DNA of 64,000 nt from Gammaproteobacteria bacterium. Its GTDB lineage: Bacteria > Pseudomonadota > Gammaproteobacteria > Competibacterales > Competibacteraceae. The stretch spans positions 1-64,000 of the forward strand of contig JADLEK010000044.1 of assembly GCA_020846135.1 (NCBI GenBank), read 5' to 3'. Position 1 is the first letter of the stretch. The number at the start of each line of letters is the position of its first letter. Shown piece after piece: positions 1 to 9,349 of this stretch. Under the pieces are notes generated by a model. That model worked only from the letters and a program-made list of their open reading frames with translations. It was not told where the DNA came from and ran no database searches. The translations under genes were made by a program, and so were the position numbers.

Positions 1-1
1 C

Positions 2-118
2 CAACTGGCGGAGACTATGATCATTCAGATGCATGGCTACCGTGAACTCAGTTCGGATACTCGATCGGTAAACGGCTTATCCCTCGCCGTCAACTGGGAG
101 TCAAGGACAGGGGGGTGA
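2..118 (+). CDS. C-terminal end of an unidentified protein (5' partial)
   Basis: An open frame enters from the left edge (first full codon at 2) and stops at TGA 116-118. The visible 38 residues end in the sequence VNWESRTGG and I do not recognise them. The stop overlaps a GTG (115-117) in the GTGA arrangement typical of translationally coupled genes, so this is probably the upstream member of an operon with the large nuclease/ATPase gene. An ATG at 17 lies in the same frame, so a free-standing 33-residue peptide cannot be excluded, but a partial gene is more likely. Confidence 0.45.
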   Translation, partial: QLAETMIIQMHGYRELSSDTRSVNGLSLAVNWESRTGG

Positions 119-194
119 ACGACTACGTTCTATTGCTCTCGCCCGCTGGATTATTTCCAAGATCGAACAGGAGAATGATTTTGCCGCTGAGGGC

Positions 195-3100
195 TTGCCC
201 GCTATTGATATAGAAAAACTGTTTAGTGAATTAGTTAGCCCATCATTTCCAGCGACACAGTTCTCCATTGCTATATCTGGCATGAATCTCACGGCAACAG
301 ATATTCAAGAAATAGCGCGTCGTGCAGGATTAGTTGGCATTCGTGAATTTGCGGATGATTTGCATATAGCAGCAGAGTGGCGAAATGATCGATTGCGACA
401 TCCCCGCACGATTGCACTGGCTGGCGGTTATAATCCTGGAGTCCATACTTTAGGTCACTATGCCCGTCCGTTGAGTGCTGATCTGGCGCGGCTATTGATT
501 GAGGATGCACATGAAAAGTTACCTGTTCGGTTTCCAGACTCACCAGAGCCTCATCGTCAATTTTTATCAGAACTTCTGCGCGGTGGGGCGGAACTTGAAT
601 CGCTGCTTTCACTGGAGGCTTGCGCTGATTATCTGGCGCTTTGGGATGCCTTGCGACCAGAACAGGGCAATCGCGCTCCGTGGCTGGCTTTGCCTGCATT
701 GGGCCTGTTGGCGGATGATGAGTTATTCAGCGCTGATCATATCGGCAAACGCCTTGCCCTGAATTTGGCTACCGTCCGGCAAGTGCGAACTTTGCGAGCA
801 TCCGATCTCCGCGCCCGGTTACGGCGGCGTTATCAGAATCCCGCCCAACAGGCGAAAATGACCGAAGCGGCTACTGCTGTTGAGGCGTATCTGGATGGGA
901 CTCCGCACTGCGTTGATGACAATCCGCTTACCCTTGCCAAGGCGCTAGTGGTGGCCCGACCACCCAAGGATGAACCAGAACCGCCAGAACCGCTTGGTCC
1001 GAATCCCGGTCCTGATCCTAACCCGCCCCAACCGCCTACCTTAACCGGCGAAGCAACCGACGCCTTGCTGGAAGGGCGCGAGGAAGATTTGGCGGCTATT
1101 GCCGATGCCATTGATGAAGCCTGGCAAGAATTTGATGCAGACCCCAGTGAAGAAATTGAAATTCCCGTAACACTGCCTTCCAACCAGCAAGAAGTGACCG
1201 GAACCACTGCCATTAACCGCAAGGTGCTGGATTGGGTACAGGCTTTTTGCAATGAAAAACACTGGGGCGGTCTTCTTAATACCACCGAAATGTCGGTAAC
1301 TGTTGCGTTGGCCGGTGCTGCGGATCGGTCGCCGGTTTTTGTATCACCGGATCAGGTCGTCACGATTGAAGGCGAGGCGCTGTCGCTGGAGAAACTGCTG
1401 GAAGGCTGGGATCAAGTTCTCCCGGAACAGATCGGACGCCAAACTCAATTAGCTGCAACTTGGCGAGAACTCCAGACCGTCCGATCCAGCTTGTTGCCCC
1501 ATCTCGGCAAACTGATCTATCACGCTCGTTCATGGCTGGATGGACGCCCGGCGATCCTGGCCCTGGTTCGCCGCTATCTGGAATTGGCCGCCCATCTGTA
1601 CCGCGAAACCCAGGAACACTATCAGGTCATGGCCGATCACAGCTCGGACTGGGCACGGGCGGTGCTGGAGGCGTTGCTGGCGCTGGACATTGTGCAAGTG
1701 CGGGTTCGTCTGCCCAACGGCAAACTCGCCGCCAAGGCGGTGTTGTTGCCGACCCATCCGCTTCACCTCTGGCGTAACGAACGGCTTTCAACTCTGTTAC
1801 GCGGCCTGGCCCAAAGCACGACCCTGACCGTTGCTGACCGTGAAGTTGTGTGCAAGGAACTGGAGCGCCCGGAGCAATTTCTGTCGGTGGTGCGGCTGGG
1901 CAGTGTGCCGGCGGGACACGGTTTGAACCAGTTGCTGCCGATCACCAGCCAGATCGAAGGGCTGCCGGTGTTCGAGAATCTCAGCAACGCCTGTTCAGGA
2001 ACCGACGGTGCCCGCGCCCTGCAAAAAGCTCTGGATCAATACATTATCCTGCATCCCAATCATCCCTATCCGTTGCGGGTCGCGCTGGTCAATCCGCCGC
2101 AGCCCGAACACCTGATGATGGAACTGGTGGGCCTGCTCAACGATCCCCGCTACCGGGGCGGGCAAAAACTCTCAGCCATTGACGCCACCATTTATGCCAC
2201 CGGCCAACATGCGGATCGGCTGCGGGCCGCGCTCAGTTTCAGCGACACCCAGAAGGAAGACGCGGTGCAGGAGAAAATCGCTGCCGACCGTCTGCACTTG
2301 CATCTTGACCAAACCTGTTTGAACGGCGAACCGCATTTGAGCGAGATCGTCAGCCGGATTCAGGCCCGGCCCTGCCATGTTGCCGCGATTTTCGACGAAT
2401 CCACCATCCGCCTGCGCCAGCGTGATGCCGGGCGGAACCTGCCGATGAGTCCGTTCTGCCTGCGTTATGAAGTGAAACTGGATCGGCTGTCCGGGCGGAT
2501 TGAATTGCGCCCGCAACCGGGTGAATCGCCGTTCAGCGAATTTCTGCTGTTGATGAACGAGCTGGAAGGCACCCAGCGGGCGGTGACGCCCCAAGCCTAT
2601 GCCGACGCCGAGATGCTGGCCAAAACCACCGATGAAATCCTGCAAGGCGATCATCCGGCCGCCCGCTGGCTGTTTTTGGCTGACCGGGCGCTGCCGTCGG
2701 AGGCCGGGATGAACTCGGTACGGATTTGGGAGCGGCGCGAGGGAATGCGCGACACGTTTTTAGCGGCGCGGGATTTTCGCCCGCTGGCCCGGCTGATTCG
2801 CCCGGTGTTCGCCGGGTGCAATCTGAATGTCACCCCGGACCACATGAGCCGCCTGCTGCATCAAGGGGCGCGGCTGTTGGGTAGCGGTGTGCTGGACATC
2901 ATCAAGTCCCAGGACGGTCTGCCTGATCAGAAAAAGGTGGTGGGTTTCGCCGGGCTGCTGTTCGCCGCCCGCGATGTGCAGCGTCGTTATCTGGGGGCGC
3001 TGGTGTTGTCGGTCGATCACCCGCTGGCGCGGCTGTGGCTACGCACCGGAACCCGGACCCTGGCGGATCGTTGCGATTTGCTGGCGTTGTGGAAAAACGA

Positions 3101-4853
3101 AACGGCGGCGGTTTTCCATCTGATCGCAATTGAAGTCAAGGCGTCAGATAGCGATCAACTTGATGCTGCCCGCCTGACCCATGCCGCCGAACAACTGCAA
3201 AACACCCTGGAGGCGGTTGATGATGGTCTGGCCGCCGCTACGTTGCAGCCCCGGTCGCCGCTCTCCATTCCCCGTTGCGAAATGCTGAAACAGACCCTGG
3301 CCCGCGCCGCGCAGACCCACTCCGGCGATGCGGCGCTGGATCGCGCCAACCGGTTGTGCTGGGGCGGCTGGCTGGTCGAACTGTTTACAGTCGAGACCGG
3401 GAAAACCGCGCCGCCGATCCAGACCAGCGGCTTAATCGTCAGCGTGCTACTGCGCCGGGAAACAGCGGGAACCCTGGAACCACTCAGACCGGCGATTCAG
3501 TGGCCCATCGCACAGCGCATCCTTGGTCTGCCGGAGATTGACGAACTGCTGAACTGGGAACCGTCAGTGCCGTCCGCCACTGCGATCAAGCCGCCCAGCC
3601 CGGTCGTTGAACCGGCTCCGGTATTGCCCGCTCCTGAACCGGTTGCGCCGCTGACTGCCGGGAATTTCCAACAAGAGGTGGTGACGCCGACTGACGAAAT
3701 CCCCCCTGCCCCTCTTTGCCAAAGGGGGGAAGCCTCGCCGCCATCCGTAACTATGGCCGCAGACCGTATTCTGCCCGTGGTAAAACCCGCATCGCCGGTT
3801 CCTGCACCCGCTACCGATCTGACCTGGCCGCCGCCGGTCAATGCCTTGGGCCTGATCGGTCAATCCCAGGCCGTCGATCTGCTGGTCAAGCAGGCCCAGA
3901 TGGTCAAGGCGCTCGGCGAACGCTTCCCCGACAAGTTGCTGGTCGGTCCTGCGGGGGTTGGCAAAAGCACGCTGGCCCGCAACATCGGCGCTCTGTTGCT
4001 GAACCACGAACCGCTGTTCTTCAGTGGCTCCGACTTGCGCCGCCCGGCCGATTTGCTGGAGCGGCTCACTCAGGAAGGACTCGCGCCTCCACCGGTGGGA
4101 ACCGGAATTGTGCGAATCGCACCGTGCCTGATCTTCATCGACGAGGTGCATGGCATTTCCGCCGCAGTCGCCACCGCGCTCCTCAGCGCCCTGGACGACC
4201 GGCGCATCACCTCCATCGAAGGCGGACTCTACGACTTCAACCAGGCGGTCTTCCTGCTGGCGACCACTGATCAAGGCAAACTGTCGGAAGCCTTCCAGAG
4301 CCGTCCCAACAAGACCTGGCTGCGTTCTTACACCCTGCATGAACTGGCCGGCATCGTCTGGCTGCGGGGCAAGGAATGTCTGGATGGCGCCGAACTGACC
4401 CAGGAAGCCTGCTACGAAATCGCCGCCCGCGCCCGCTGCAACCCACGCCGCAGTGTTCGGGAATTGAGCGAGGCGTTGCGTCCGCATTTCTTCCACTGTG
4501 CGATGCAGCAAGCGGCAGATACGCCGTCATTGCGCCAGGCCGCCGCGCTGATGACGGCTGAGAATATCGCCGCCTTCTATGAAACACAGGGCATTGACTA
4601 CAACGGCATTGACGATGTGGCGCGCCGCTTTCTACGTTACTTGGAACAGCATGGTTCAGTGTCGGAAGCGACCTTACGGCAGGCGCTGGGTTTGACCCAC
4701 CAGCAGGATTTCGTCGAAACGGCGGAATATCTGACCCGGTTGGGATTGATTGAAACTTCATCGGCGGGCCGAAATTTGACGCGGGAGGGGCGGCGCTACC
4801 TCAATGCCAACCCGCCGCCTGATCTTCGCCAGCGCATTTCCCGGGCGATGTAG
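195..4853 (+). CDS. Large PD-(D/E)XK-like nuclease fused to RuvB-like AAA+ ATPase
   Basis: 1,552 residues from TTG 195, the first usable start in this frame. No complete family is recognised. Visible layout: N-terminal region; Pro-rich linker (about 255-285); long central region; a likely PD-(D/E)XK nuclease core (D961 in CDLLALW, then E980 and K982 in IAIEVKAS); a second Pro-rich linker (about 1110-1215); a RuvB-like AAA+ module with Walker A GPAGVGKST (K1257), Walker B LIFIDEVHG (D1316, E1317) and sensor-like TTDQG; and a C-terminal winged helix as in RuvB. The central part, including a HPLHLW motif, reminds me of the non-motor region of DptH-type restriction proteins, but no HerA motor is seen. 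In-frame coding-like sequence continues upstream of 195, so the true start is probably GTG 115 with a frameshift near 138. A DNA-targeting defence role is inferred. Confidence 0.72.
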   Translation: MPAIDIEKLFSELVSPSFPATQFSIAISGMNLTATDIQEIARRAGLVGIREFADDLHIAAEWRNDRLRHPRTIALAGGYNPGVHTLGHYARPLSADLARLLIEDAHEKLPVRFPDSPEPHRQFLSELLRGGAELESLLSLEACADYLALWDALRPEQGNRAPWLALPALGLLADDELFSADHIGKRLALNLATVRQVRTLRASDLRARLRRRYQNPAQQAKMTEAATAVEAYLDGTPHCVDDNPLTLAKALVVARPPKDEPEPPEPLGPNPGPDPNPPQPPTLTGEATDALLEGREEDLAAIADAIDEAWQEFDADPSEEIEIPVTLPSNQQEVTGTTAINRKVLDWVQAFCNEKHWGGLLNTTEMSVTVALAGAADRSPVFVSPDQVVTIEGEALSLEKLLEGWDQVLPEQIGRQTQLAATWRELQTVRSSLLPHLGKLIYHARSWLDGRPAILALVRRYLELAAHLYRETQEHYQVMADHSSDWARAVLEALLALDIVQVRVRLPNGKLAAKAVLLPTHPLHLWRNERLSTLLRGLAQSTTLTVADREVVCKELERPEQFLSVVRLGSVPAGHGLNQLLPITSQIEGLPVFENLSNACSGTDGARALQKALDQYIILHPNHPYPLRVALVNPPQPEHLMMELVGLLNDPRYRGGQKLSAIDATIYATGQHADRLRAALSFSDTQKEDAVQEKIAADRLHLHLDQTCLNGEPHLSEIVSRIQARPCHVAAIFDESTIRLRQRDAGRNLPMSPFCLRYEVKLDRLSGRIELRPQPGESPFSEFLLLMNELEGTQRAVTPQAYADAEMLAKTTDEILQGDHPAARWLFLADRALPSEAGMNSVRIWERREGMRDTFLAARDFRPLARLIRPVFAGCNLNVTPDHMSRLLHQGARLLGSGVLDIIKSQDGLPDQKKVVGFAGLLFAARDVQRRYLGALVLSVDHPLARLWLRTGTRTLADRCDLLALWKNETAAVFHLIAIEVKASDSDQLDAARLTHAAEQLQNTLEAVDDGLAAATLQPRSPLSIPRCEMLKQTLARAAQTHSGDAALDRANRLCWGGWLVELFTVETGKTAPPIQTSGLIVSVLLRRETAGTLEPLRPAIQWPIAQRILGLPEIDELLNWEPSVPSATAIKPPSPVVEPAPVLPAPEPVAPLTAGNFQQEVVTPTDEIPPAPLCQRGEASPPSVTMAADRILPVVKPASPVPAPATDLTWPPPVNALGLIGQSQAVDLLVKQAQMVKALGERFPDKLLVGPAGVGKSTLARNIGALLLNHEPLFFSGSDLRRPADLLERLTQEGLAPPPVGTGIVRIAPCLIFIDEVHGISAAVATALLSALDDRRITSIEGGLYDFNQAVFLLATTDQGKLSEAFQSRPNKTWLRSYTLHELAGIVWLRGKECLDGAELTQEACYEIAARARCNPRRSVRELSEALRPHFFHCAMQQAADTPSLRQAAALMTAENIAAFYETQGIDYNGIDDVARRFLRYLEQHGSVSEATLRQALGLTHQQDFVETAEYLTRLGLIETSSAGRNLTREGRRYLNANPPPDLRQRISRAM
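3701..3729. repeat. Short palindromic repeat inside the nuclease/ATPase gene
   Basis: A C6T/AG6 inverted repeat (arms 3701-3707 and 3723-3729, 15-base spacer) lies in frame in the second Pro-rich linker of the large gene and encodes IPPAPLCQRGE. It looks like a dispersed intergenic hairpin repeat that has been accommodated in a flexible linker without breaking the reading frame. Confidence 0.6.
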
Positions 4854-4866
4854 CCAGGAATTATCC

Positions 4867-6441
4867 TCAGGCGCGCACCACCACGATGCGCCGGCCCTGA
4901 GGACTGCGGGTTTCAGCGCAGCCAGTGCGCTCGGCGATGGGCGGTTGCCCGGAACGGCGATCGAAAATCACCAGCCAGCCGGTGTCCAGCCCCAGCCCGG
5001 CCAGGTAGCTATCCAGTTGATGCAGCCCGGTCGGGAGCGGGTCGGGAGCGCCGTCACGCCAGACCTTGAGTTCCATCCCCAGCGTCATTCCGCCATAACG
5101 CAGACAGAGATCCATCCGGCCCGAGCCGATAGCGTATTCCCGCTCCAGGGTCCCATCGCCATTGACCACCCGGTGCAGAAACGCCATCAGCACCAGATGG
5201 GGGGCGATCTCGTGATACGGCGCACTGCCGAGCAACGGCTGGCCGTGTTGCCGCCAGAAGTCCAGAAACGCCGCCAGCAGGCGTTCGGGATTGAGACTGC
5301 CATCAGCGTTCAGCCAGATCGGCGCGATCTGCGGCAGTGAGGCCTGAGGGGTAAACGCTAGGGCGCGCGGCAACACTTCGCGGTAAATCGGATTGGCGAT
5401 GGTCAGGCCCTGCCCGGACGCCATTTGGCAGAGACCGAGATCGATCAAATACTGAATGTCATCTTCGGGGACACCCTCCATCAGCGTCCCGGCCAGCATC
5501 GGTTCGATCACCCGCCGCACCCGCTCTTCGCGCAGCTTGTCGGCCAACTGATCCAGATGGGTCACCCGGTTAATGATCAGCCGTTCCTTGGCCTGATCGA
5601 TGAGCGCGGCCGTGATCGGCTGGCTCCGGTCGCGCCCTTCCGGCAAGCGAAAACAGGCCTGATAGGCCAGGGCGTTGACCAGCCACGGCTGGCCCTGCGT
5701 GAGATTCCAGACCCGCTCCAGCGCCTCGGGAGTGAAGACCTGTCCGACCTCTGTCGTATGCTCCTGGAGCAAGGCAACGACCTCGTTCGCGCTGAAGTCG
5801 CCTAAACGCAGCGATTCCGCCCGGATGTTGAAGGCGCCGCCGCCGGTGATGATCGCAACCTCGGCGCTGGAGTGAATCCGGTAGTCGCGCAGATCGCGCA
5901 CTCCACACAGAATCACCGTCTGCGGGAAATGGTGTGGACGCTGCTCGTAACCGGCGCGCAACTGCCGCAATAACGAGATCAGAGTATCGCCGACCAGGGC
6001 ATCAACCTCGTCTAGCAGCAACACCAGCGGGCACGGCGATTGGGACGACCAGCGGGTAAGGAAAGCCTCCACCCCCACCAGCAGCGAGGGTCCTTGCAGA
6101 ACTTCACGCGCCAGCGCGTCGGCGTGCGCATCCCCCAGTCGCCAGGTGGCGCTATTGGCGATCGCTTGCACCACTGCGGCCATCCCGGCTTCGACCCGTT
6201 CGCGGGCCGCCTGCGCCGCTTCGATATTGACGTACAGCGCCCGATACCGTCCCTCGCGATTGAGATGATCCATCAGAGCCAGCAGACAGGTGGTTTTGCC
6301 GGTCTGGCGCGGGGCATGGAGCAGGAAGTATTTCTTCTGGTCAATCAGCGTCAGAATCTCGTCGAGATCCCAGCGGCGCAGGGGCGGCAAACTGTAGTGA
6401 TCGTCGAGCCGGTTCGGACCTTCAGTATTGAAAAAACGCAT
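4867..6441 (-). CDS. AAA-family ATPase with C-terminal PD-(D/E)XK nuclease domain
   Basis: 524 residues. The N-terminal half is a STAND/AAA_35-like ATPase with Walker A HAPRQTGKTT (K49) and Walker B VLLLDEVDAL. The C-terminal end carries a PD-(D/E)XK signature: D444 in GSGRMDL, E457 and K459 in MELKVW, followed by LHQLDSYL. The family begins with a conserved stretch around RLDDHYSLPPL. I chose ATG 6441, which has GGAG seven bases upstream; the longer frame to 6681 runs antisense into the permease gene. It starts 14 bases after the TauE-like gene and ends 13 bases from the convergent large nuclease gene. Such proteins are often multicopy and associated with mobile or defence regions; substrate unknown. 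Confidence 0.8.
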   Translation of the reverse strand: MRFFNTEGPNRLDDHYSLPPLRRWDLDEILTLIDQKKYFLLHAPRQTGKTTCLLALMDHLNREGRYRALYVNIEAAQAARERVEAGMAAVVQAIANSATWRLGDAHADALAREVLQGPSLLVGVEAFLTRWSSQSPCPLVLLLDEVDALVGDTLISLLRQLRAGYEQRPHHFPQTVILCGVRDLRDYRIHSSAEVAIITGGGAFNIRAESLRLGDFSANEVVALLQEHTTEVGQVFTPEALERVWNLTQGQPWLVNALAYQACFRLPEGRDRSQPITAALIDQAKERLIINRVTHLDQLADKLREERVRRVIEPMLAGTLMEGVPEDDIQYLIDLGLCQMASGQGLTIANPIYREVLPRALAFTPQASLPQIAPIWLNADGSLNPERLLAAFLDFWRQHGQPLLGSAPYHEIAPHLVLMAFLHRVVNGDGTLEREYAIGSGRMDLCLRYGGMTLGMELKVWRDGAPDPLPTGLHQLDSYLAGLGLDTGWLVIFDRRSGQPPIAERTGCAETRSPQGRRIVVVRA

Positions 6442-6455
6442 GGGGAACTCCGTTT

Positions 6456-7283
6456 TCAGGCAATAACCAGCTTGACCAGCATGAACAACGCTACCACCGC
6501 GATCAGGGCGGCGAACAGCGTTTGCAGCGTCGGGCCGGCGATGCGCCGCCCTACCGCGATACCCAGCGCCATACCGCCCAATCCGCCCAGCACAAAGCCG
6601 AGCGTGACGCTGAGATTCAGCGGTTGTCCGGCCAATAGATGGGCGGCAAAACCAATGGTGCTGATCAAAGCGATCACCCACAGCGAAGTCGCCACTGCCC
6701 GCTGCATCGGCAAGGACGCGATCAGCACCAGCGCCGGCACGATCAGAAAACCGCCGCCGACCCCAAACAGCCCGGACAGCAGACCGGTCAGCGTCCCAGC
6801 CAAGGTCAGCCGGAGGGCGCAGCGTGAGGTGAATTGCAATCGCCCGCCGGGATCGTAGCGGCAGACCGGGCCAGTCGGGTCCTGGTCAGGCTCGCTGCCG
6901 GCGCGGACGATGCGGGTTGCTTCAGGCTGGCGGTGCGCCTGCCGCCACATCCGCGCCGCCACCGCCAGCATCAGCAGGGCAAAACCAGTCAGCAGCGCCG
7001 TAGCGGGAAACCGGGGATTCAGCCATGCGCCCAGCGGCGCGCCAACGCTCCCGGACAGGCCGAAAATCAGCGCAGTCCGCAATTCAGCCTGACCATCGCG
7101 CAGTCGCGCCAAGCCGCCGCCCAACGCGGTCGCGCCGACCGCCGCCAGCGAAATCACCACCGCCTGATGGGCTGGAATGTCCAGACCATAGACCAGCAAT
7201 GGTACGGCGAACACCGAACCACCGCCGCCGGTCAGGCCCAGCGCAAAACCAATCAGAACACCGAACAGCAGGCTGAGGATCAT
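6456..7283 (-). CDS. TauE/SafE-family membrane transporter
   Basis: 275 residues, almost wholly hydrophobic with about eight predicted membrane segments in two related halves. Each half opens with a Gly-rich motif (GLTGGGGSVFAVPLL near residue 17 and LFGVGGGFLIVPAL in the second half) typical of the TauE/SafE family. Members export sulfite or sulfoacetate, or move other small organic anions, across the inner membrane; the substrate here cannot be told. The charged loop between the halves is rich in Arg/Glu/Asp. The gene lies downstream of icd, from which it is separated by a terminator, and just upstream of the AAA-nuclease gene. Confidence 0.85.
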   Translation of the reverse strand: MILSLLFGVLIGFALGLTGGGGSVFAVPLLVYGLDIPAHQAVVISLAAVGATALGGGLARLRDGQAELRTALIFGLSGSVGAPLGAWLNPRFPATALLTGFALLMLAVAARMWRQAHRQPEATRIVRAGSEPDQDPTGPVCRYDPGGRLQFTSRCALRLTLAGTLTGLLSGLFGVGGGFLIVPALVLIASLPMQRAVATSLWVIALISTIGFAAHLLAGQPLNLSVTLGFVLGGLGGMALGIAVGRRIAGPTLQTLFAALIAVVALFMLVKLVIA

Positions 7284-7404: not shown

Positions 7405-9171
7405 TCAGACGTCCGGCCCCCAGCCAAAGACTTCCACGGTGCGGAACAGGTCATTGTCCGTCACCATCCCGACCGGCTTGCCGTCCATCTCGACAATCAC
7501 CCGCCGCACATTGGCTTCGGTCATCCGCTGCGCCGCCTCGGCCAGCGCCATTTCCCGCTTGGCCGTGACCAGTGGCCGGGTCGCGATTTCACCGACCTGG
7601 ACTCGCGCCGGCGACCGGTTGAGGCTGATGATCTTTTTCAGCACATCGCGGTCGGTCATGATGCCCCAATGACCACTGGCGTCCGGCTCGACCATCACCG
7701 CGTTGACGCCCTTCTCGATCATCTGGTGCATGGCGACATTGACCATCTCATGGTTCTTGACGGTGATGACCGGCGACATGATTCCACCGACGGTATTCGG
7801 CATCCGCCCCGAGGCGATCATCGCCTGTACCGGATCAGCGACCCGAGCGGCTTCCAGCATCCGGCGGGCTTCGACCAGCGCCTGACGGCGCCGGTCAATC
7901 TCTTGACGCAACGCTGGCCCCTGTTCGCGCATCTTGATGATGATCAAATCGCCAAACTTGCTGGTCGGAACCTCGGTGCCGCCGTCCATCAACCGGGCGA
8001 AGTCGTAGGTGACGGTCTTGTCGGCAATCACCTGGGTCAGCGCCGATTCGATCAATTCCGCCGCTTCGGTCCAGCCCATGTATTGCAGCATCATCACCCC
8101 GGACAGCATCAGTGAACCGGGGTTGACTTTGTCCAGATTGGCGTACTTGGGCGCGGTGCCATGAGTGGCCTCGAACACTGCAATATGGTCGGCCATGTTG
8201 GCGCCGGGGGCGATGCCGATCCCACCCACTTCCGCCGCCACCGCGTCGGAAAGGTAGTCGCCGTTCAGGTTCATGGTGGCCAATACCGAGAACTCTTCCG
8301 GACGCAGTTGCAGTAACTGGAAAATAATGTCGGCGATCCGATCCTTGATCACCACCTTGCCGGGGGGCTGCTTGCCGCCATAAACGCTGTACAGGTCGTT
8401 TTCGGTGATGGTTTGATCGGGGAATTCATCCCGCGCCAACTCATAGCCCCAGTTCCGGAATGCGCCTTCCGTGAACTTCATGATGTTGCCCTTATGCACC
8501 AGGGTCACGCTGTCGCGGCCATGATCAATGGCGTACTGAATGGCTTTGCGCACCAACCGCTTGGAGGCGAATGGCGAAATTGGCTTGATGCCCAGCCCGG
8601 CAGCATCGAAGAAATCCGCGCCCATTTCTTCGCGCAGGAATTTGGCCAGCTTGATGTTCTCCGGCGAGCCGGATTTGTATTCGATCCCGGCGTAAACGTC
8701 TTCGGTATTCTCACGGAAAATGATCACATCGACTTTTTCGGGATGGCGCACCGGCGAGGGGACACCGGGGTAGTAGCGCACCGGGCGAACGCAGGCGTAC
8801 AGGTCCAAATCCTGGCGCAACGCCACATTCAAGGAGCGGAACCCGCCGCCAATCGGGGTCGTCAGCGGCCCTTTGATGGCGACGACCAGTTCCTTGATGG
8901 CTTCCAGGGTTTCCTCGGGAAAGTAGTTGCCATCGTAGATTTCCGCTGCTTTCTCGCCCAGGAAAATTTCGCACCAGTGGATTTTGCGCTGACCGCCATA
9001 AGCCTCTTCAACCGCCGCATCCCAGACCCGCAGCGAAGCTTTGGTAATATCGGGGCCAATGCCATCGCCTTCCACAAAGCCGATGATGGGTTGATCGGGA
9101 ACATTGAGTTTGCCGTCCTTGACCGTAATTTTTTCACCGCTGGCGGGCATGCGAATGTGTTGGTAAGCCAT
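7405..9171 (-). CDS. icd: NADP-dependent isocitrate dehydrogenase with C-terminal CBS pair
   Basis: 588 residues from ATG 9171, which has AGGAG at proper spacing (a longer frame to 9246 has none). Residues 1 to about 412 are a bacterial Icd (oxidative decarboxylation of isocitrate to 2-oxoglutarate in the TCA cycle). The substrate and phosphorylation loop [13 protein letters not shown] is intact, including the Ser that AceK phosphorylates in E. coli, and the core ends near [11 protein letters not shown] as E. coli Icd does. A charged, probably helical linker (about 415-455) leads to two CBS domains (about 461-588; [22 protein letters not shown]). CBS pairs usually bind adenosyl nucleotides, so energy-state control of the enzyme is a reasonable inference. 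Transcribed divergently from oxyR. Confidence 0.95.
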
Positions 9172-9349
9172 GACTACTCCTGACTTGTTGTGCGTTCGGT
9201 AGGGGTGGATCCGGGACTGTGCAGGGCGGCAGGTAAAATGCCGCAACGGACCTGAAAAACCGGGTATAAATTACCGGCAAACGCCGATGCTGTCCATGAC
9301 GGCGGGCCATTGTCGCCTCTCAACCAATTGCCCATCCTGTGCTATCGCC

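What the first reader, a model, noticed from the sequence alone, without database searches (positions are those of the whole stretch)
195..4853. PD-(D/E)XK nuclease region fused to a RuvB-like motor in one 1.55-kb-residue protein
RuvB modules are normally stand-alone Holliday-junction motors. Here a Walker A/B-containing RuvB-like AAA+ and its winged helix are joined through a Pro-rich linker to a large region carrying D961...E980-x-K982, a plausible nuclease core, with similarity to the non-motor part of DptH-type restriction proteins (impression only). The pairing suggests a DNA-targeting defence effector in which a RuvB-like motor replaces HerA. The upstream operon partner is cut off by the window, so the full system is not visible.
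Basis: partly seen in the sequence, partly recalled or inferred. Interest (0 to 1): 0.75.

Follow-up and report, generated by a model that had tools for sequence, protein, structure and literature searches.

The report
Phage-defence nuclease with borrowed RuvB motor
A giant bacterial protein resembling the DNA-cutting subunit of known anti-phage systems (DndH/SspH) carries, where its relatives have an FtsK/HerA DNA pump, a copy of the RuvB motor that normally moves recombination junctions, which suggests these defence systems can swap in unrelated motors; in this genome the operon looks broken.

Summary
The 1552-aa ORF (195-4853) ends in a complete RuvB-like AAA+ domain plus winged helix (NCBIfam RuvB 3.6e-22) and has a conserved D961...E980-x-K982 nuclease signature. 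The intact operon in genome G177, inside a phage-like element, is DruA-SspF(DndF) fusion / SspG-like / this protein; an IMG/VR contig has the same operon with FtsK. So this is an SspFGH/DndFGH-type restriction complex whose translocase was replaced by RuvB. The published 'HerA/FtsK capture' survey of DndH never mentions RuvB. The captured RuvB is one diverged clade under strong purifying selection (dN/dS ~0.07), keeps its ATPase residues, lacks 7 residues of the RuvA-binding hairpin, and coexists with an intact chromosomal RuvB. In this genome the operon looks broken: a repeat truncates the 5' end, F is on another contig, no G was found. Function is inferred; the nuclease fold was not confirmed by structure prediction. 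New variant of a known kind.

The parts
1..126 (.). Right end of a repeat (mobile element or similar) identical to the first 126 bases of contigs C51 and C28; it cuts the gene's 5' end
127..194 (+). In-frame coding sequence upstream of the TTG (aligns with the N-terminus of the G177 homologue: ...SIALARWIISKIEQENDFAAEG); no ATG/GTG/TTG start remains upstream
195..4853 (+). SspH/DndH-like effector with C-terminal RuvB-like motor, 1552 aa as called from TTG
195..1154 (+). N-terminal region aa 1-320, alignable with FtsK-type homologues (weakly on its own: E=1e-4 to L053)
1743..1772 (+). LLPTHPLHLW motif (aa 517-526); P-x-HPL is invariant in the RuvB- and FtsK-type relatives aligned and matches SP-x-HP-(L/I) of DndH in the profile comparison
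2928..3236 (+). Predicted PD-(D/E)XK nuclease core, aa 912-1014; D961 at 3075-3077, E980 at 3132-3134, K982 at 3138-3140
   Evidence: invariant residues; profile match to DptH/DndH REase; helix-strand-strand-strand-helix order in low-confidence models
3558..3839 (+). Pro-rich linker (aa ~1122-1215), fast evolving (dN/dS 0.2-0.3)
3852..4853 (+). RuvB-like AAA+ motor and C-terminal winged helix (aa 1220-1552)
3945..3971 (+). Walker A GPAGVGKST (aa 1251-1259)
4128..4151 (+). Walker B LIFIDEVH (aa 1312-1319)
4224..4229 (+). Site where 7 residues of the RuvB presensor-1 hairpin (RuvA-contacting tip) are missing, between G1344 and L1345
4254..4310 (+). Sensor 1 (LLATT, aa 1354-1358) and Arg finger region (FQSRPN, aa 1367-1372)
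4440..4460 (+). Sensor 2 NPRRSVR (aa 1416-1422), cognate of RuvB GTPRIANR
4602..4802 (+). RuvB_C winged helix (aa 1470-1536) retaining the GR of the RuvB TPRGR motif

Best explanation
This is the H (effector) subunit of an SspFGH/DndFGH-type restriction complex whose C-terminal HerA/FtsK DNA translocase has been replaced by a RuvB-type AAA+ ring motor. The full system is DruA-SspF fusion + SspG-like + this protein. Inferred mechanism: the F subunit (P-loop sensor with a DruA/GNAT domain) and the G subunit help recognise foreign or unprotected DNA. The H body binds DNA. The RuvB-like domain assembles on duplex DNA as an ATP-driven translocase without RuvA, and movement is coupled to nicking by the PD-(D/E)XK domain, as described for DndFGH. 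Shown here: domain identities, colinearity with FtsK-motor homologues, the operon in G177, conservation. Inferred: complex formation, translocation, nicking, anti-phage role. In the window's own genome the operon is interrupted and may be inactive.
For: RuvB domain complete, with ATPase residues kept. Body matches FtsK-motor proteins: window vs L053 E=2.7e-40 over 857 aa, vs Hal31 E=6.6e-32 over 1012 aa. The motors of such FtsK-type relatives hit SspH at 1.6e-67 and 1.4e-61. Profile match to annotated DptH/DndH: whole body 51.9 and 41.1, collinear, vs shuffle maximum 23; nuclease segment E=3.6e-6, score 48.3 vs shuffle maximum 24.2. Operon DruA-SspF / SspG-like / SspH-RuvB with overlapping ORFs in G177, inside a phage-like element with recombinase, LexA-like repressor and phage-type helicase. 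Same operon with FtsK motor on an IMG/VR contig. F matches DndF/DptF, score 83.6 vs shuffle maximum 24.9. DruA-SspF present in the window's genome. Purifying selection on both parts. Published: DndFGH forms a 2:2:1 complex with translocation-coupled nicking (PMC11662687).
Against: No confident predicted structure: pLDDT 36 and 44, and Foldseek gave nothing usable. SspG-like identity rests on PADLOC E=6e-5 for G177; it does not match DndG by profile. No SspG-like gene found in the window's genome or family, so the system here is incomplete or was split by the assembly. No phosphorothioate or methylation genes recognised next to G177's operon, so self/non-self discrimination is unexplained. No experiment shows activity.
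Confidence: 0.74

Rival explanations
1. It is a decaying relic in this lineage: a once-mobile defence operon now broken by repeats and island turnover, with the H gene lingering but not functional in the window's genome. (Compatible with the best explanation of what the protein is; it concerns its present state here.)
For: The 5' end is cut by a repeat. F is on another contig, ending ~180 bp from the contig end in what looks like another insertion. No G gene found in 39 family genomes. G020 keeps only 97 aa of F and the 3' half of H around an HNH gene. G030 keeps the 3' half next to a MamI-type restriction-modification pair. G145 has lost the RuvB part.
Against: The window and G026 frames are fully open over >1540 codons with dN/dS 0.07-0.13. 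The G gene could sit on a short unbinned contig between the two repeats.
Confidence: 0.5
2. It is a DNA-repair or recombination enzyme: a RuvB-nuclease fusion that processes Holliday junctions in host or mobile-element DNA, not a defence effector.
For: The motor is RuvB-like with the C-terminal winged helix; the G177 copy lies in a phage-like element with recombinases.
Against: The same body carries FtsK elsewhere. Partners are DruA/SspF/SspG-type. It is sporadic: 7 of 39 family genomes, 2 of 48 in G177's class, and in 369 genomes sampled from the window's class only its own. Housekeeping RuvB is retained. The RuvA-binding hairpin tip is missing.
Confidence: 0.1
3. The nuclease is dead and the protein is a RuvB-powered remodeller or sensor that blocks phage replication without cutting.
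For: No structural confirmation of the fold; SspFGH suppresses T4 replication without visible DNA debris (PMC8092258).
Against: D961, E980 and K982 are invariant across 21-25% identical relatives, and the segment aligns with the DndH REase, reported to keep its catalytic residues (PMC10853773).
Confidence: 0.12

Closest known systems
DndFGH / DptFGH restriction module (DndH/DptH subunit)
   Same: Three-gene logic with P-loop F; giant H with a large body, PD-(D/E)XK nuclease segment and C-terminal DNA motor; can occur without phosphorothioate genes
   Different: Motor is RuvB AAA+ rather than HerA/FtsK; overall sequence similarity only at profile level; G not matched by profile
SspFGH (V. anguillarum type; PADLOC SspF/SspG/SspH)
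   Same: Best PADLOC matches of the F part, the G gene and, in FtsK-motor relatives, the H motor
   Different: No sspBCD modification genes recognised beside G177's operon; motor is RuvB; F fused to DruA
RuvB Holliday-junction motor
   Same: Full-length AAA+ large and small domains plus winged helix; Walker A/B, sensor 1, Arg finger, sensor 2 kept
   Different: Fused to a >1200-aa nuclease protein, scores 65.6 bits against 483 for the genome's own RuvB (cut-off 299), lacks 7 residues of the RuvA-binding hairpin
Druantia (DruA, PF14236/DUF4338)
   Same: A DruA domain is fused to the F subunit; haloarchaeal relatives also lie near a DEAD/DEAH helicase and a weakly DruD-like gene
   Different: No DruE-type helicase recognised next to the operon in the G177 element; DruA is fused to SspF, an architecture (GNAT/DUF4338 on DndF) noted in PMC10853773
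'HerA/FtsK capture' systems (Rakesh, Aravind, Krishnan 2024, PMC10853773)
   Same: Same evolutionary logic: H body conserved, motor acquired from different sources
   Different: All captured motors reported there are HerA/FtsK; RuvB is not mentioned in the main text

Membership tests
DndH/DptH/SspH effector | Large conserved body (inactive helicase, TRD and inactive methylase domains) N-terminal to the nuclease | tested here: inconclusive
   Colinear with FtsK-type SspH-like proteins nearly end to end, but only two collinear segments match the DndH profile above shuffles; individual domains not resolved
DndH/DptH/SspH effector | PD-(D/E)XK REase with catalytic D...ExK | tested here: met
   D961/E980/K982 invariant and aligned with DptH/DndH D..E-x-K at hhalign E=3.6e-6 vs shuffles; fold itself not confirmed
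DndH/DptH/SspH effector | C-terminal HerA/FtsK translocase | tested here: not met
   RuvB-like AAA+ plus winged helix instead
DndFGH/SspFGH system | Adjacent F (P-loop) gene | tested here: met
   In G177 operon; DndF/DptF profile score 83.6 vs shuffle maximum 24.9; in the window's genome the F gene is on another contig, C66
DndFGH/SspFGH system | Adjacent G (multi-wHTH) gene | tested here: inconclusive
   G177 ORF hits PADLOC SspG E=6.4e-5, haloarchaeal relative 2.5e-12; no DndG profile match; not found in the window's genome
DndFGH/SspFGH system | Coupling to phosphorothioate modification genes | tested here: inconclusive
   None recognised among the ORFs of G177's contig that were read; rest of genomes not searched
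RuvB (TIGR00635 equivalog) | Score above curated cut-off | tested here: not met
   65.6 bits vs 299.05; housekeeping copy at G000:C18 scores 483.3
RuvB | RuvA-binding presensor-1 hairpin | tested here: not met
   7-residue deletion of the tip in all six fused copies aligned vs 13 standalone RuvB; role of hairpin from general knowledge
RuvB | ATPase residues and C-terminal winged helix | tested here: met
Druantia | DruA with DruE helicase | tested here: not met
   DruA present; no DruE-like gene recognised near the G177 operon; only haloarchaeal relatives have a nearby DEAD/DEAH helicase

The most novel reading that the evidence does not exclude
Motor capture in DndH-type defence reaches beyond the HerA/FtsK clade to RuvB, and with the RuvB ring the system gains a new target preference: it loads on branched or recombining DNA (Holliday junctions, replication and recombination intermediates of phages) without RuvA and nicks it, i.e. 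a junction-directed restriction system distinct from the sequence- or modification-directed DndFGH.
Probability: 0.25. Interest if true: 0.82.

Novelty: new variant of a known kind. Interest (0 to 1): 0.64.

Why it matters
The 2024 DndFGH analysis called 'HerA/FtsK capture' one of its most striking findings. Here the same kind of body has captured a motor from a different P-loop lineage, a RuvB AAA+ ring with a different DNA-handling mode. That makes testable whether the motor only supplies translocation (any duplex pump will do) or decides which DNA is attacked. It also gives a RuvB that appears to have dispensed with RuvA.

Tried and rejected
AlphaFold2 of aa 1-1165 (pLDDT 36) and of the nuclease segment (pLDDT 44) were too poor. 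Secondary structure order around D961-K982 fits PD-(D/E)XK, but Foldseek on the better model gave only noise. No PDB sequence match for the body, and only chance-level ones for the nuclease profile. No PHROG family or phage-record match. Pfam and PADLOC do not recognise the body; it only became identifiable through haloarchaeal plasmid homologues. Considered and rejected: chimeric assembly of two genes (same fusion in several independent genomes); displaced housekeeping RuvB (intact RuvB present); plain Druantia (no DruE recognised near G177's operon). SspH and DndH family searches of 274 class genomes gave one DndH and no SspH; the controls rang in neither, so this says little about abundance.

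Full report
What is there. The ORF at 195-4853 (+) encodes 1552 aa without a stop. Residues 1220-1539 match RuvB along its full length (3.6e-22; T. maritima RuvB 3.9e-9), including the large and small AAA+ domains and the RuvB_C winged helix. Aligned with 13 standalone RuvB proteins, the fused domain keeps Walker A, Walker B, the ATT sensor 1, the arginine-finger region and sensor 2, plus the GR of the C-terminal TPRGR motif. In every fused copy aligned, seven residues of the presensor-1 hairpin tip are missing. That hairpin is the known RuvA contact in RuvB (general knowledge), so RuvA independence is an inference. The fused domains form one strongly supported long-branch clade in the tree. 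The genome also has an ordinary RuvB at C18:40623-41534 (483 bits, against 65.6 for the fusion).

The 5' end. The first 126 nt are identical to the starts of contigs C51 and C28, i.e. the end of a repeat. Reading upstream of the TTG, homology with the complete G177 protein runs back to the repeat boundary and stops there. The gene is therefore 5'-truncated by about 14 codons and has no in-frame ATG/GTG/TTG before 195. G026's copy is also cut near its N-terminus at a contig start.

What the body is. Pfam, PADLOC and PHROGs do not recognise residues 1-1165. A tblastn search of plasmids found haloarchaeal proteins annotated 'DNA translocase FtsK' matching residues 340-983. In the three plasmids examined they are encoded next to DruA and two further genes, which PADLOC, scanned for one of them, identifies as SspF-like (2.2e-15) and SspG-like (2.5e-12); the FtsK protein hits SspH at 1.6e-67 through its motor. 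An IMG/VR contig (L053) has a DruA-SspF fusion, a G-like gene and an FtsK-type H protein. The window body aligns with these over most of its length (E=2.7e-40 and 6.6e-32). Only the C-terminal motor differs: FtsK there, RuvB here.

Link to DndH/DptH. Against a profile of annotated DptH (Massilia, Aliivibrio) and related DndH proteins, the family profile gives two collinear matches, scores 51.9 and 41.1. Forty column shuffles reached at most 23, and reversed controls 17-18. A profile of the two DptH alone did not score above that level. The nuclease segment alone gives E=3.6e-6 (score 48.3; 100 shuffles at most 24.2), with D961 and E980-x-K982 on the DptH/DndH D...E-V-K. Those residues are invariant in all relatives aligned. 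Rakesh et al. describe the DndH REase as retaining its catalytic residues and followed by HerA/FtsK domains captured from six clades (PMC10853773). RuvB does not occur in that text. A full-text search that paired RuvB, DndH, DptH, SspH, DruA and antiphage found no paper joining RuvB to any of these proteins in a defence setting.

The operon. In G177 (a class of which 48 genomes are held) three genes overlap: DruA-SspF fusion 1281 aa, G-like 454 aa, H-RuvB 1583 aa. They lie between a serine recombinase with LexA-like and phage-type replication genes on one side and a tyrosine integrase with a caspase-domain gene on the other, i.e. they look like cargo of a phage-like element. G145 has G and H, but H has lost its RuvB part. 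F shows clear profile similarity to DndF/DptF (83.6 vs shuffle maximum 24.9), G none to DndG. The DruA/GNAT fusion to DndF has been noted in general.

The window's genome and family. The F partner is intact on contig C66:179-3904, ending about 180 nt before that contig's end; the sequence in between has no G gene. No G was found in 39 family genomes. Seven of 39 carry the fusion or part of it. Several are remnants beside other defence genes: an HNH gene in G020, a MamI-type R-M pair in G030. In the window, G017 and G021, H is followed by the same TauE and isocitrate dehydrogenase genes, so part of the distribution is inherited in place. dN/dS between the window and G026 is 0.13 (body) and 0.066 (RuvB): the motor has been maintained as part of this protein.

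Mechanism. DndFGH is described as a 2:2:1 complex with translocation-coupled nicking repressed by phosphorothioate marks (PMC11662687). SspFGH needs all three genes, damages unmodified DNA and suppresses phage replication (PMC8092258). The simplest reading is the same machine with a RuvB ring as the pump. Motor identity, colinearity, operon context and selection are shown; complex formation, pumping, nicking and anti-phage action are inferred. How self is spared is unknown: no modification genes were recognised next to G177's operon.

Limits. Structure prediction failed to give a usable model. Only sampled genomes were searched, so rarity is approximate. In the window's own genome the system may be dead.

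Noticed in passing
window 1-126; contigs C44, C51, C28 starts: Identical 126-bp sequence begins three contigs of this genome: the end of an unassembled repeat that truncates the fusion gene.
   Followed up: partly
G000:C66:179-3904 (L042): The missing partner, a 1241-aa DruA-SspF fusion, lies at the end of another contig of the same genome, next to DUF3141, thrS and pheS genes; the ~178 bp before the contig end look like another insertion element.
   Followed up: yes
window 4867-6681 (-): Convergent neighbour: a 604-aa AAA ATPase whose C-terminus looks PD-(D/E)XK-like by eye (REYAIGSGRMDLCLRYGG...MELKVW), possibly another defence or mobile gene.
   Followed up: partly
window 7405-9246 (-): Isocitrate dehydrogenase fused to a C-terminal CBS domain (PF00180 + PF00571), an unusual regulatory fusion in a core enzyme; conserved at ~90% in relatives.
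   Followed up: partly
L032/L033 (haloarchaeal plasmids): DruA / SspF / SspG / SspH(FtsK) operon divergent from a DEAD/DEAH helicase, a weakly DruD-like gene and another gene, followed in two plasmids by a DUF262/GmrSD-like protein: looks like a hybrid Druantia-SspFGH locus.
   Followed up: partly
L067:2485-6689 (G177): Caspase-domain (Peptidase_C14) gene next to a histidine-kinase-like and a response-regulator-like gene at the other side of the G177 element: possible second defence cargo.
   Followed up: no
L053:8912-13651 (H, aa 75-211) and L053:7434-8915 (G): The FtsK-type H N-terminus matches MAD8 and its G gene matches MAD7 of the methylation-associated defence system (E ~1e-4, below cut-off), hinting that MADS contains an SspFGH-like core.
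   Followed up: no
L035:1149-6106 (G145): H gene in G145 ends just after the linker and runs into an unrelated ATP-binding/transcriptional-regulator-like ORF; the RuvB part is gone.
   Followed up: no
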